From: Chryseobacterium sp. ISL-80
Lineage (GTDB): Bacteria > Bacillota > Bacilli > Bacillales > Cytobacillaceae
Direction: 5' to 3'
DNA length: 64,000 nt
Assembly: GCA_018613055.1 (NCBI GenBank)
Contig: JAGGQZ010000016.1
Span: forward strand, 1 to 64,000
Below the pieces are notes generated by a model. It searched no databases. It was not told the origin of the DNA and was given only the letters and a program-made list of their open reading frames with translations. Positions 51,735 to 63,200 of this stretch are shown in pieces (the first letter of the stretch is position 1; the number at the start of each line of letters is the position of its first letter). The position numbers and the translations under genes are program-made.

Positions 51735-52095
51735 ACTTCAGACAATTTGACGGCGGCTTCCCGTTGTATTGTCCGAAGTTGCCTCAGGTTCGGACAATAT
51801 CTCGACTTCCGATCGGTACTTTGTCCGAAGTCACCCTTACTTCAGACAAATTGACAGCTGCTTCCCTTAGTTTTTTCCGAAGTTACCCCAGGTTCGAACA
51901 ATATCTCGACTTCCGATCGTTATTTTGTCCGAAGTCACCACTACTTCAGACAATTTGACGGCCGCTTCCCGTAATTTTGTACGAAGTTGCCCAGCTTCGG
52001 ACAATATCTCGACTTCCAATCGTTACTTTGTCCGAAGTCACTCCCTCTTCAGCCAATCCCCCTGCTTTCCAACGATCTCTTGCCCAAGGGTTACC
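51735..52095. repeat. 52-bp tandem repeat array between ypiF and ypiB
   Basis: Seven units open with TTCGGACAA or TTCAGACAA at 51737, 51789, 51841, 51893, 51945, 51996 and 52048: steps of 52, 52, 52, 52, 51 and 52 bases. Two unit types alternate, so the exact repeat is 104 bases. Each typical unit has TTCGGACAA at its start and the complement TTGTCCGAA about 32 bases later, so a unit can fold alone or pair with the next one. The last unit is decayed. Frames running through the array change phase each unit (52 is not a multiple of 3), so it is not coding. Confidence 0.85.
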
Positions 52096-52163
52096 TCCTT
52101 AAAACTCAAAATGCCAATACCATTAAAAACAAGCAAAATAAAAAGCCTGCTAATTTAAGCAAG

Positions 52164-52718
52164 CTATAAAGAATTGACTGCACCTAATTTTTTTAATTGC
52201 TCTGTAAGATGTTCGAAGGCTTCCTGGTCCTGGCTGTCCAGCGCCTGGTCAATCAGGGATAACAATTTGTCTTTCTGGAAATTGTGGATGCTTTCCTCCA
52301 GAAATCTTTCTGCCACCATTTTGTCGCTTTCACTGATTTGGAGCTGCCCCGGCATATACGGGTTTTCTTCCAGTACGGCCGCAAACTGATGGGCTTTGTT
52401 TGAAGCATGGAAATTCAGTTGGATGTAGATTTCTTCTTCCCTGTTCAAACGAATATCATGAAAAGACTTCTCAGCGTCGGTCGTCATCACGTTTTCTTTG
52501 AAGAACCGGAATGGCACCTCATCCACGCAATGTGTCGACATCACTAATCCCCTAGGGCAATGCTGGGCATTATCCACAAAGTGTACCTTTTCCATCAGCT
52601 GATCATGGCTCATCAAGTAGTTAAGGATCCAAACACATTCCCGCCTTTTCAGCTGATAATGGTTCAAAAACCAGCGGATAAAATCCTTTTTCTCGTTGAC
52701 AGATACAGGGGTTGTCAT
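52164..52718 (-). CDS. ypiB: YpiB, UPF0302 protein
   Basis: A 184-residue cytoplasmic protein. The N-terminal part ([40 protein letters not shown]) and [15 protein letters not shown] are the UPF0302 core; the C-terminal part (about 140-180) is the IDEAL-type helical segment [20 protein letters not shown]. The function is unknown. The ATG at 52718 follows GAGGAGGG. It is followed 5' by ypiA with a 39-base gap, an operon kept in B. subtilis. Confidence 0.88.
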
Positions 52719-52757
52719 TTTTGAATCCCTCCTCTGCATAACTCAAATTTTTTTCGG

Positions 52758-54029
52758 TTACTGATTTCCCGTCAAACGCTCCAGCATTTCACGGAATTCT
52801 TCATTGCCAGGTTCCTTTTCAACTAACATACTTAGAATTTCGGCGGCGTCGTCCATTTTTCCTTCTTCAATCAAAAAATATCCGTAGTCTGACAAAAATT
52901 CTTTGTTGTCTTTAAAGAAAGTATATGCTAGTTGGTATTTGTTTAATGCCTGTGAATAATCTTCAATATGCTGATATGCTATAGCTGCGTCCCAAAGGAT
53001 TTGCGGTTCCTCTTCTTCATTGTAATCCGCTGCACCAATCAGCTCCAGAACATCCTCATACCGCTCCTGCTTCAACAAAAGCTTGTTCAGCACTAGAACG
53101 CCTTCCATGAATCCCGGGTCAAGCGCAATGGCCTCACGGATCATTGTCTCGGCAGATTCTTCATCCGGAAGCTTAAGGGCAAGCTTCCCGCCATAAAAGT
53201 AAAGATCCTTATTATATTCATCCTGCTCGATACCCTGTTTGACAGCTTCAAACGCTTCCTCTGCCATTTCTTCGCGTTCATAGGCTTTGGCAAGATAGAG
53301 GTATAGTGAGTGATATTCAGGGTCGAGAGTCTTCAATTCCTCGAACTTTTCGATCGCTGTTTTATTATAGCCAGCCTGCAGTGCTGTAAAAGCATAACCG
53401 AATAAAGTATTGATTTCCAGCTTTTGTTCAAGGGCTATGTCGTAAAAATGAAGCGCTTCTTCAAATGATCCCCCGGCGCTTAACATTTCAGCCAGCCTCT
53501 GGTTGATGTTTACCCCGCCGATTTCTTCATGTACTTTTAGGACCGTTTCGTAATATTGGATCGCTTCCGCAAGCTTCCCCTGATGAGCATAAAGTTCGCC
53601 CAAAGCAAAATCAATCACCGTTTCATCCGGTAGGATTCTTTTAGCCTCGAGAAGTTTGTTTTCACTCACTTCAAAGAGACCTTCCATTTGATATAAATCA
53701 GCCAACAGAAGAAGTGCCTGGGGAAAAGCAGGATCATCTTTGCCTACCTTTTCAAGAGAAAGCATAGCCTCTTCCTCTTTGCCGAGTTCAATTCTTGTTT
53801 CTGCCAGCAGGACATGGAGTTCGCCCTCATCAGGATAGTTTTTCAATAAACTTTCAATCAAAGCCTCTGTTTCTTCCATAAATCCGAAACGAAAAAGCTC
53901 TTCGGAAAGAAGAAATTTCTCTTCATCATTGCCTTGCTCAAGAATCTCCTTATAGGCAGACATAGCCTTATCAAGCTGTCCATTTTCTATAAGACTGGTT
54001 ATTTCGTTTACTGCGACCATTGCTATCAT
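52758..54029 (-). CDS. ypiA: YpiA, tetratricopeptide-repeat protein
   Basis: About 423 residues made almost wholly of TPR helices, for example GNDEEKFLLSEELFRFGFME, LAEAIQYYETVLKVHEE and YSQALNKYQLAYTF. It is acidic, soluble and probably a scaffold or assembly factor; the partner is unknown. Two ATG codons three codons apart (54029 and 54020) are both plausible after AAGGATAGG. The length matches B. subtilis YpiA. It is in an operon with ypiB. Confidence 0.87.
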   Translation of the reverse strand: MIAMVAVNEITSLIENGQLDKAMSAYKEILEQGNDEEKFLLSEELFRFGFMEETEALIESLLKNYPDEGELHVLLAETRIELGKEEEAMLSLEKVGKDDPAFPQALLLLADLYQMEGLFEVSENKLLEAKRILPDETVIDFALGELYAHQGKLAEAIQYYETVLKVHEEIGGVNINQRLAEMLSAGGSFEEALHFYDIALEQKLEINTLFGYAFTALQAGYNKTAIEKFEELKTLDPEYHSLYLYLAKAYEREEMAEEAFEAVKQGIEQDEYNKDLYFYGGKLALKLPDEESAETMIREAIALDPGFMEGVLVLNKLLLKQERYEDVLELIGAADYNEEEEPQILWDAAIAYQHIEDYSQALNKYQLAYTFFKDNKEFLSDYGYFLIEEGKMDDAAEILSMLVEKEPGNEEFREMLERLTGNQ

Positions 54030-54090
54030 CCTATCCTTAAAATTAGGCACTGTCTGTTTTCCTTACATTGAACAGAACCCTAACGTTTTT

Positions 54091-61394: not shown

Positions 61395-61595
61395 ATACTT
61401 TCCCCCTTCAACTCGCTAAAGGATTTGTTTTACTATATCACACAGTTTCCAATAAATAAATTAAAAATTTCGAAATATGTATGATTCCTTTTAAAGAATG
61501 AAGCCATTTTATCACGAACCCCACAGTCTCGCAAAAAAACCATCATGTATTACTATTGTCTGCATACATCAGGTGATTTTATTTTGCAAATAGCA

Positions 61596-61620
61596 AAAGG
61601 AGCACGGTTACCCGGCTCCT
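61596..61620 (-). terminator. cheR terminator
   Basis: Stem GGAGC / GCTCC with the central GGGTAACC, followed by TTTTGC on the minus strand; it lies directly after the cheR stop. The 230-base gap to aroC shows nothing else I recognise. Confidence 0.65.
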
Positions 61621-61624
61621 CCTG

Positions 61625-62398
61625 TTATTTCTTCCTGTAAAAGAAAGTCTCCGCAGTCTCAAAATCATATGTACCCGGATTGAAGATTTGTTCTGTGCTG
61701 CCTACAAATAAAATGCCACCCTGCCTTAACGCCGAGCTGAAATTATGGTAGATGCTTTCCTTTGCCTCTTCGGTAAAATAAATGAGGACATTCCGGCAGA
61801 CAATCAAATCGAACGGACCGCTATAGCGGTCGGCGAGCAGGTTTTGTTTTTTAAAGGTAACAGTCCTCTTAATCTCATCGGCAACTGTATAATATGGTCC
61901 TTCCTTCTTGAAAAACTTACTGACCATATCCTTTGGCGCTTCATTCAGCGCCCTTTCCGAATACACACCATGCCTGGCCTTCGCCAATACGTTATCATCG
62001 ATATCCGTCGCAAGAATCTGGATCCTGGCTAGTGGAAGATGCTTTGAAAGCACCATCGCCAAGGTATATGGCTCTTCACCAGTCGAGCAGGCGGCACTCC
62101 AAATTTTTGGGTTGGGGTTTTTGCTCAACAACTCAGGAAGAATCGTCTGATCCAGGACCTCCCACCTTTTTACGTTCCTGTAAAACTCAGAAACATTGAT
62201 CGTCATCCGATCGAGAAATTCATTCAATAGCTGCCGGTCTTTGTCGAGAGCTTGATAAAATTCCTGGAAAGAGGCAAAGCCTTTCTTTTGATAAAGAGAA
62301 GTCAGCCGTCTCTTCATCTGGGCTTCTTTATAGAGAGAAAGGTTGATACCTGTCTTCTGGTAGATTTTCGATATAAAGATTTCATAATCTTGCTGCAT
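61625..62398 (-). CDS. cheR: Chemotaxis protein methyltransferase CheR
   Basis: Methylates glutamates of chemoreceptors for adaptation. The 257 residues have the helical CheR N-domain (about 1-70, [20 protein letters not shown]), the SAM-binding [19 protein letters not shown] (about 97-115), [19 protein letters not shown] and [20 protein letters not shown] (about 200-220). The VSEFYRN motif with the conserved N/R is present. ATG follows AAGGGAG. It lies between ndk and aroC as in B. subtilis. Confidence 0.95.
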
Positions 62399-62569
62399 CT
62401 GTTTGCTCCCTTATCGATACTAGAAAAATCTGGACAATCCCATTATAGCGAAAATTTTTGAGATGCGTGCACTATTTTTTGCCCCCCTGTTCAGCTCGAA
62501 CTGGTTTCCTAAGGTCATTAGGGGACAAGGCACTTTGTTTATGAAAAAACATGGCTCCAATGAAAACGA

Positions 62570-63200
62570 TTCAATTGGTGCTATGAAAACACAGTTTTTA
62601 GAGCTTCAATCTGGGTTATTGGTGTCCTGATATCTTAGTTTCTGGAAAATCATTGTTCCATTGGGGGTTATTGGTGTTTCGATATCACAGTTTTTTGGAA
62701 AAACAGTGCTCCAATGAAGTCTATTGGTGTCACGATATCACAGTTTCTGGAAAATCAGTGATCCAATAAGGGCTATTGGTGTCACGATAACACAGTTTTT
62801 GGAAAATCATTGTTCCAATGGGGGTTATTGGTGTCACGATATTACAGTTTCCGGAAAATTAGTGCTCCAATGAGGTCTATTGGTGTCACGATATCACAGT
62901 TTCTGGAAAATCAGTGCTCCAATGAAGTCTATTGGTGTCACGATATTACAGTTTCTGGAAAATTAGTGCTCCAATGAGAGCTATTGGTGTCACGATATTA
63001 CAGTTTCTGGAAAATCAGTGCTTTAATGAGAGCTATTGGTGACCTAGAATCTCAGTTTTCGGGAAAATAAGGATCCAATAAAGCTTATTGGTGACCTAAA
63101 ATCTCAGTTTTTGAAAGAATAGGGTTCTAATGAAGCCGATTGATGACCCAATAGCACAGTATCTGAAAAAGCAGGGCACCAATGAGGAATATTGGCGCAA
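62570..63200. repeat. 52-bp tandem repeat array between cheR and ndk
   Basis: About twelve units. ATTGG occurs at 62574, 62618, 62670, 62723, 62775, 62827, 62879, 62931, 62983, 63035, 63087, 63139 (as ATTGA) and 63191: nearly every step is exactly 52 bases. The consensus unit is ATTGGTGTCACGATATCACA, then GTTTCTGGAAAATCAGTGCT, then CCAATGAAGTCT. CCAAT-N7-ATTGG forms an inverted repeat at each unit junction. Units in the centre are nearly identical; the edges are decayed. It fills most of the 840-base gap; no gene is present. Confidence 0.93.

What the first reader, a model, noticed from the sequence alone, without database searches (positions are those of the whole stretch)
51735..63200. Two unrelated intergenic arrays share an exact 52-bp period and the same inverted-repeat layout
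The arrays at 51735-52095 and 62570-63200 have no visible sequence similarity, yet both step by 52 bases with almost no drift, and in both an inverted repeat is split so that it can pair within a unit (long loop) or across a unit junction (short loop: 11 and 7 bases). 52 bases is close to five turns of B-DNA, so each unit would present the same face. Two independent sequences keeping one period suggests selection on spacing, or one copying mechanism that uses a fixed unit length. I know of no described family that explains this. CRISPR is ruled out because the whole unit is repeated.
Basis: partly seen in the sequence, partly recalled or inferred. Interest (0 to 1): 0.78.

Follow-up and report, generated by a model that had tools for sequence, protein, structure and literature searches.

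The report
Fixed 52-base repeat arrays in Mesobacillus
Between the genes of this bacterium lie arrays of repeated DNA whose letters differ from array to array but whose unit is almost always 52 bases long; the class was already published as an unexplained oddity, and the evidence here suggests that its units share a fold-back layout and act as DNA rather than as RNA.

Summary
Array 1 (51719-52055) and array 2 (62606-63195) both step by 52 bp. They are not a chance pair: in stretches taken without regard to repeats, 4 of 4 arrays of period 38 or more in 260 kb of this genome and 14 of 15 in 400 kb of congeners are 51-53 bp. The class is in print: '52 nt tandem repeats, constant size, variable sequence' of Bacillus (Subirana & Messeguer 2021, PMC8161180).

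What I add: (1) in many genera the unit is a 27-bp dyad TGTC-N19-GACA plus about 25 bp, with arms that change but stay complementary; (2) indels per substitution are 5-7 times rarer inside arrays than in ordinary intergenic DNA of similar divergence; (3) some neighbouring units with unrelated linkers keep the spacing; (4) stem mismatches show no G.T excess on the presumed transcribed strand, whereas terminators do, so the constraint looks DNA-level; (5) arrays lie behind gene ends and rarely between divergent genes; (6) a Y1/RAYT transposase is not required. Best reading: DNA dyads with a five-turn protein ruler, protein unknown.

The parts
51719..52055 (.). Array 1: 7 dyads of the TGTC-N19-GACA type (5 clear, 2 degenerate; arms CGAA/TTCG), 52-bp steps, two alternating linkers (104-bp higher-order unit); between ORFs 51068-51544 (ypiF-like) and 52164-52739 (ypiB-like), both on minus; gene names recalled, not searched
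   Evidence: of five congeners compared, F1 arrays at this place in G015, G016, G018, a decayed one in G001, none in G011
51770..51796 (.). Clearest complete dyad of array 1: TGTCCGAA-N11-TTCGGACA
51926..51952 (.). Dyad of array 1 used in the cross-genus alignment A2
62606..63195 (.). Array 2: about 11-12 units with dyad CCAAT-N7-ATTGG and a second short element (CTGG...), 52-bp steps; between ORFs 61625-62398 (cheR-like) and 63243-63857 (ndk-like), both on minus; gene names recalled, not searched
   Evidence: a TRF array at this place in 2 (G011, G020) of 20 congeners
63203..63231 (-). Terminator-like hairpin (GACACTTGC / GCAAGTGTC, T-run on minus) between the ndk-like gene and array 2
   Evidence: read from the sequence; a similar hairpin in most congeners
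52135..52165 (-). Terminator-like hairpin (AGCTTGC / GCAGGCT, T-run on minus) between the ypiB-like gene and array 1
   Evidence: read from the sequence; also in the five congeners

Best explanation
Both arrays belong to the published class of 52-nt, constant-length, variable-sequence tandem repeats of Bacillus. Shown here: units carry a short dyad able to fold back (in the commonest kind a 10-bp stem TGTCNNNNNN with a 7-base loop); the next dyad begins 52 (51-53) bp on; arms vary between arrays but stay complementary; indels are rare; arrays lie behind gene ends. Inferred: the arrays work as DNA, not RNA. A nucleoid or topology protein (not identified) recognises the dyad at each unit, and bound neighbours must touch at exactly one unit, five helical turns, so that units of wrong length drop out and are lost. 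The likely role is chromosome architecture or supercoil handling at gene ends. Growth is probably by unequal recombination or slippage that copies blocks of units.
For: Membership: see Membership tests. Spacing: in loci not picked for exact 52 bp, 183 of 184 single steps between strict dyads are 51-53 (of these 115 come from loci picked by a pattern open to 38-68 bp). Indels per substitution 0.035 in own-genome arrays (79 per 2273, divergence 0.172) against 0.174, 0.196, 0.195, 0.234 in intergenic DNA at divergence 0.170-0.193 (four congeners) and 0.100 at 0.083 (a fifth). Linkers: in loci picked by the open pattern, 7 of 107 neighbouring linker pairs are under 50% identical and 14 of 14 of their spacings are 51-52. 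Covariation on 39 units of 39 genomes: score 0.467 against 0.146 shuffled (0 of 500 reach it), cells changed on both sides 80 against 34.5, slid controls 0.104-0.178. DNA, not RNA: in stems oriented by co-directional genes G.T 223, A.C 214, against G.T 213, A.C 59 in 560 terminator-like hairpins from largely the same loci. Place: 80 co-directional, 40 convergent, 9 divergent of 129 arrays; ordinary gaps of 100 bp or more: 212/45/67. Sequence-free: arrays of 51-53 bp without TGTC in congeners, and in G008, which has no TGTC pair but 4 arrays of 52 bp in 380 kb.
Against: No protein was identified or tested. Complementary arms could be kept by template-switch mutation rather than selection. In one search two of five measures do not separate well: pairs with a change on both sides 6 against 5.8 (413 of 500 shuffles reach it), pair types 23 against 19.4 (11 of 500). 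Subirana & Messeguer report transcription of such arrays in B. coagulans (PMC8625621, passages). The strand test takes its direction from flanking genes; antisense transcription would blur an RNA signal. Fold-back is weak in some families: the two window units have z about -2.2. One array (L332) has an 85-bp step. Ten-base-pair arms are short for cruciform extrusion (recalled).
Confidence: 0.5

Rival explanations
1. Mutational ruler without function: hairpins on a replicating strand, or a recombination enzyme of fixed reach, generate 52-bp copies and remove misfits; arrays are tolerated in 3' intergenic DNA.
For: Turnover: the ndk-cheR array is in 2 of 20 congeners, the ypiB-ypiF array is missing in G011 and decayed in G001; higher-order units of 104 and 156 bp; arrays avoid divergent gaps as neutral insertions would.
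Against: Indel depletion relative to substitutions inside standing arrays and constant spacing between units with unrelated linkers ask for something that acts after copying. I know of no mechanism that measures 52.
Confidence: 0.25
2. RNA function: arrays are transcribed into hairpin-rich RNA (sponge, small RNAs, Hfq), as Subirana & Messeguer suggest.
For: Reads from these repeats exist in B. coagulans RNA-seq (PMC8625621, passages; PMC8161180). Covarying stems are also what an RNA would show.
Against: No G.T over A.C excess on the strand of the flanking genes (223 to 214; without the loci picked by the 52-bp pattern 115 to 135) though terminators show 213 to 59. Of 155 gene ends pointing at an array, 70 have a terminator-like hairpin first. 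No Rfam match over arrays. An RNA does not obviously need an exact 52-base pitch.
Confidence: 0.1
3. Sequence-specific protein sites, in the manner of plasmid centromere repeats: a dimer binds TGTC...GACA and polymerises.
For: The paired TGTC dyad occurs in 138 of 193 genomes of the family (control 0-1 per genome) and 77 of 397 of an order sample.
Against: Arrays without TGTC keep 51-53 bp. Arm positions 7-9 vary freely but stay complementary. The search pattern itself fixes TGTC/GACA, so their invariance in A2 is by construction.
Confidence: 0.12
4. REP/BIME-like elements spread by a RAYT (Y1) transposase.
For: Hairpins, hundreds of units, gene 3' ends: outwardly like BIMEs (recalled).
Against: G015 (536 dyad pairs) and G022 (111) have no Y1_Tnp match; the other 43 of 45 genomes tested, array-rich and array-poor alike, have at least one.
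Confidence: 0.03

Closest known systems
52-nt tandem repeats of Bacillus (Subirana & Messeguer, IJMS 2021, PMC8161180: text parts 1-4 of 5 and the tables read, supplements not seen; J Bacteriol 2020 not held, not seen)
   Same: Repeat length 51-53, variable sequence, several families per genome, not coding, partial conservation between strains, short motifs present with their reverse. Their Table 1 lists TGTC-type units (B. coagulans 8_52_18, litoralis 42_52_9, alkalitelluris 71_52_7) and names B. selenatarsenatis with B. boroniphilus and B. subterraneus; M. subterraneus is in the window's genus.
   Different: In the parts read they state that there is no sequence conservation and do not report the TGTC-N19-GACA layout, arm covariation, indel depletion, a strand test or a 3'-end bias.
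20-21-nt tandem repeats of the same authors
   Same: Constant length near whole helical turns, variable sequence; arrays of 20-21 or 41 bp also occur in these genomes.
   Different: Two turns rather than five; not studied here.
REP/BIME elements of enterobacteria (recalled)
   Same: Extragenic palindromes, hundreds per genome, behind genes, sometimes in regular arrays.
   Different: No present-day RAYT dependence; fixed 52-bp unit; arms not conserved.
CRISPR arrays (recalled)
   Same: Regular pitch, short palindromes.
   Different: The linker is repeated too rather than being a unique spacer. Cas genes were not looked for.
Plasmid centromere repeats such as sopC (recalled)
   Same: Tandem units each with a dyad; protein array on DNA.
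   Different: Many chromosomal loci, no fixed sequence, no known protein.

Membership tests
52-nt tandem repeats of Bacillus (Subirana & Messeguer) | Repeat length 51-53 nt with few indels | tested here: met
   Both window arrays 52 bp; units of own-genome arrays: 289 of 291 are 51-53 bp, 265 exactly 52
52-nt tandem repeats of Bacillus (Subirana & Messeguer) | Sequence differs between families in one genome | tested here: met
   Three unrelated kinds in this genome: TGTC type (with at least three arm sets), CCAAT type, GGGTATCTTT type
52-nt tandem repeats of Bacillus (Subirana & Messeguer) | Not protein-coding | tested here: met
   0 of 49 TRF arrays overlap a called ORF by more than 100 bp (home-made gene caller); 1 of 159 in the wider set
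52-nt tandem repeats of Bacillus (Subirana & Messeguer) | Host group: Bacillus species incl. the selenatarsenatis/subterraneus group | tested here: met
   G002, same genus as the window, is 100% identical over 3500 bases to Mesobacillus subterraneus DSM 13966
REP/BIME | Associated RAYT (Y1) transposase | tested here: not met
   No match in array-rich G015 and G022
CRISPR | Constant repeats with unique spacers | tested here: not met
   Linkers repeat within arrays
CRISPR | Adjacent cas genes | not tested
   No cas search was run
Known structured RNA family | Match to an Rfam model | tested here: not met
   No match over the window arrays or in 20 array loci of other genera, gathering thresholds
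Protein-binding nucleoid array | Bound by a protein with a 52-bp repeat | not testable with these tools
   Needs binding data

The most novel reading that the evidence does not exclude
A structure-and-length code: an unidentified bacterial chromosomal protein assembly reads fold-back dyads of almost any sequence provided that they recur every five helical turns, so that genomes of some thirty genera in the window's order maintain dozens of architecture elements whose only shared property is geometry.
Probability: 0.3. Interest if true: 0.85.

Novelty: new member of a known kind. Interest (0 to 1): 0.5.

Why it matters
The class has been called 'enigmatic' in print, with two rival ideas: small RNAs or a nucleoid protein (PMC8161180). 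The covarying dyad, the indel depletion, the missing G.T strand bias and the gene-end position are sequence evidence that bears on the choice, and favour DNA. They also give an experimenter a concrete bait (dyad plus linker, with pitch variants) for finding the protein.

Tried and rejected
RAYT/REP: array-rich G015 and G022 have no Y1_Tnp. Loss of the hairpin nuclease SbcCD as a permissive cause: a SbcD match in 34 of 34 genomes, over the cut-off in 33 (the exception is array-rich G402). Phage or plasmid spread: array 2 has no blastn match in phages or plasmids (array 1 was not tried there); the three-dyad pattern hits one viral contig. Rfam: none. My impression that G008 and genus g2 lack 52-bp arrays was wrong: other sequences, same length.

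Flawed steps: (gene caller missed genes) is replaced. The array half aligned arrays in register with themselves and is replaced; its intergenic half is used. One search held one mis-registered row and is replaced. and mixed in loci that had been fetched by an exact 52-bp pattern (L206-L318); I recounted without them and use those numbers. With them one search gives 570 of 573 steps at 51-53, and one search gives 18 of 565 low-identity linker pairs, 35 of 36 spacings at 51-53.

Rows dropped: L165 and L175 (pattern matches of spacing 38 and 68, taken as chance), 6-9 gaps per congener for length difference over 60 bp, 0-1 for divergence, and an uncounted number whose flanks were not found, 30 of 159 arrays without two called neighbours. 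Limits of the indel test: TRF-chosen arrays lean to regular ones, and the unit walk accepts steps within 4 bases of the pitch. One search looked for steps of 51-53 and doubles only.
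Full report
CHECKING THE OBSERVATION. Both arrays exist as described. Array 1 spans 51719-52055 with dyads of the form TGTCCGAA-N11-TTCGGACA; array 2 spans 62606-63195 with dyads CCAAT-N7-ATTGG. Steps are 52 bp (or 104 where a unit is degenerate), with one 51 in array 1 and one 53 in array 2. The two are unrelated in sequence. Each belongs to a dispersed family (38 and 13 blastn matches in the own genome, several per array). 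Both lie between minus-strand genes, behind a terminator-like hairpin of the upstream gene.

IS 52 CHANCE? In array-bearing and blind stretches TRF gave 52 or 53 (with 51-bp consensus in a few rows that the arm spacing resolves to 52) for the arrays of this kind, in three unrelated sequence kinds: TGTC type with several arm sets, CCAAT type, GGGTATCTTT type. A census without regard to sequence counted tandem arrays of period 38 or more. In this genome 6 of 6 in 324 kb are 52-53, of which 4 lie outside the window (260 kb, stretches chosen blind). In eight congeners 20 of 22 in 800 kb are 51-53. Of these, 14 of 15 are in 400 kb chosen blind (exception 54 bp, probably coding) and 6 of 7 in 400 kb syntenic with the window (exception 89 bp); four of these six are orthologues of the window's own arrays. 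In 360 kb of seven other genera, all from genomes without TGTC pairs, none is 51-53 (one of 39 bp). Periods of 20-37 bp were also seen in the first two sets (4 and 12 arrays). G008, a congener without a TGTC pair, has 4 of 4 at 52 in 380 kb with new sequences; G195, of a genus whose 13 tested genomes lack TGTC pairs, has one of 52 and two of 65 in 200 kb; G495, of another family, three of 52 and one of 196 in 200 kb.

DISTRIBUTION. The pattern TGTC-N19-GACA, N11-41, TGTC-N19-GACA (spacings 38-68) occurs in 138 of 193 genomes of the family (17 of 25 genera; 598 forward matches here; reversed control 0-1 per genome) and in 77 of 397 genomes and 33 of 135 genera of an order sample. A few genera rest on a single match, which may be chance. 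G002 of the window's genus is 100% identical over 3500 bases to Mesobacillus subterraneus DSM 13966, so the genus is Mesobacillus. One viral contig has the pattern; array 2 has no match in phages or plasmids.

ANATOMY. Steps between consecutive strict dyads, in loci not picked for 52-bp spacing: blind Mesobacillus stretches 52 x40, 51 x1; syntenic region 52 x18, 85 x1; loci picked by the open pattern 52 x92, 51 x23; blind G495 52 x9. That is 183 of 184 at 51-53, besides doubles of 102-104. Four or six helical turns do not occur, so length, not only helical face, seems fixed. On 39 units from 39 genomes the ten stem pairs are 87.9% paired (69.6% shuffled), with 80 cells changed on both sides (34.5) and covariation score 0.467 (0.146; 0 of 500 shuffles; slid controls 0.104-0.178). 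The number of pairs changed on both sides (6 against 5.8) and of pair types (23 against 19.4; 11 of 500) separate less well. The outer four pairs are fixed by the search pattern and say nothing. A second count, one unit from each of 43 arrays, gives Watson-Crick pairing 0.79-0.86 at positions 7-9 against 0.29-0.44 expected. As single strands of DNA six units fold with z-scores of -2.2 to -5.3; the two window units are the weaker ones with L327 (-2.27, -2.17, -2.28).

CONSTRAINT ON LENGTH. Between neighbouring units of own-genome arrays divergence is 0.172 with 79 indels per 2273 substitutions (0.035), 255 pairs; 265 of 291 units are exactly 52 bp. Orthologous intergenic DNA of the window's region gives 0.174 (G001), 0.196 (G018), 0.195 (G015), 0.234 (G016) at divergence 0.170-0.193 and 0.100 at 0.083 (G011), from 20-25 gaps each. 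Indels are thus 5-7 times rarer at similar divergence. In loci picked by the open pattern 7 of 107 neighbouring linker pairs are under 50% identical (random linkers: median 0.36, 95th percentile 0.56), in 4 loci, and all 14 of their spacings are 51-52. In own-genome loci 6 of 52 are, all in one alternating array (L022; 12 of 12 spacings 52-53). In the syntenic region 1 of 14, with spacings 52 and 85.

RNA OR DNA? A stem kept as RNA tolerates G.U but not A.C, so G.T should exceed A.C on the transcribed strand. With the strand set by co-directional neighbours (80 arrays), stems give G.T 223 and A.C 214; 37 arrays lean one way, 32 the other. Without the loci picked at 52 bp it is 115 to 135. The positive control, 560 terminator-like hairpins from largely the same loci, gives 213 to 59. 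This argues against an RNA constraint, with the caveat that antisense transcription would blur it. Of 155 gene ends pointing at an array 20-400 bp away, 70 have a terminator-like hairpin first; for comparison 566 of 1750 gene ends have one within 150 bp.

PLACE AND HISTORY. Of 159 arrays of three or more dyads 129 have both neighbours called: 80 co-directional, 40 convergent, 9 divergent; without the 52-picked loci 38/15/4. Ordinary gaps of at least 100 bp in Mesobacillus stretches: 212/45/67. Median distance is 114 bp from an upstream 3' end (gaps of 20-400 bp) and 220 bp to the next start. The baseline is from one genus, the arrays from many, and the gene caller is home-made, so these are approximate. 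The ypiB-ypiF array, looked at in five congeners, is present in G015, G016, G018, decayed in G001 and gone in G011; the ndk-cheR array is found by TRF in 2 of 20 congeners. Blocks of 2-4 units recur (104, 156, 208-209 bp).

WHAT IS KNOWN. Subirana & Messeguer (PMC8161180; parts 1-4 of 5 and the tables read) report 1886 arrays of 51-53 nt in 176 Bacillus genomes, constant in size, variable in sequence, in about 30% of species, and offer small RNA or nucleoid protein as explanations. A sequel reports transcription in B. coagulans (PMC8625621, passages). Of their 2019 paper (PMC6749651) I saw passages only, which do not treat the 52-nt class; their 2020 J Bacteriol paper is not held. In what I read I found no mention of the conserved TGTC dyad, covariation, indel depletion, a strand test or a 3'-end bias. 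My ten paper searches found no other report of the class, but most subscription papers and the supplements were out of reach.

MECHANISM. Shown by computation: geometry conserved, sequence free within complementarity, indels rare, no transcribed-strand bias, gene-end position, no present-day need for a Y1 transposase, no link with SbcD. Inferred: a protein assembly on DNA whose neighbours contact at one unit. Not shown: any protein, any function.

Noticed in passing
L023:8917-9029 and L104:16375-16489: Arrays of 20-21/41 bp with the core TTCGCCAATAAAATT in this genome and in G016: the second published constant-length class (20-21 nt) is also present.
   Followed up: no
L342:10740-11671, L342:15524-15934, L343:376-738, L351:8351-9525: G008, a congener without any TGTC dyad pair, has 52-bp arrays that share GGTAACGCAAG or its reverse: a different repeat sequence at the same length. 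Not folded.
   Followed up: partly
L327:18960-19691 and L333:19228-19857: Arrays of about 51 and 53 bp with unrelated hairpins; suggests 51-53 rather than 52 is the tolerated band.
   Followed up: partly
L332:8468-9715: The ypiB-ypiF array of G015 has an 85-bp step, a partial unit within an otherwise 52-bp array: a rare exception to the ruler.
   Followed up: no
L261, L271, L252: The three-dyad pattern occurs in genomes labelled Sedimentibacter sp. SX930 and Paenibacillus sp. BSR1-1; either a wider host range or wrong labels.
   Followed up: no
L185:3480-3700: The only viral-collection hit is an AATGTCTAAGA..TAATAGACATT array near the contig end, possibly host DNA.
   Followed up: no
window 28743-28909: Hexamer/18-mer repeat AATGGT/AATGGCAATGATAACGGA inside the ORF at 26319-28985, probably a coding repeat.
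   Followed up: no
window 39476-39561, 13060-13448, 1617-1850: Rfam matches: pan motif, RNase P class B and a T-box leader, all on the minus strand.
   Followed up: no
L122, L127, L128, L131 (ndk-cheR gap): In several congeners without the array this gap holds other repeat-like sequence (GCGGAAAGCG..CCTGGAACG type), so the site may accept repeats.
   Followed up: no
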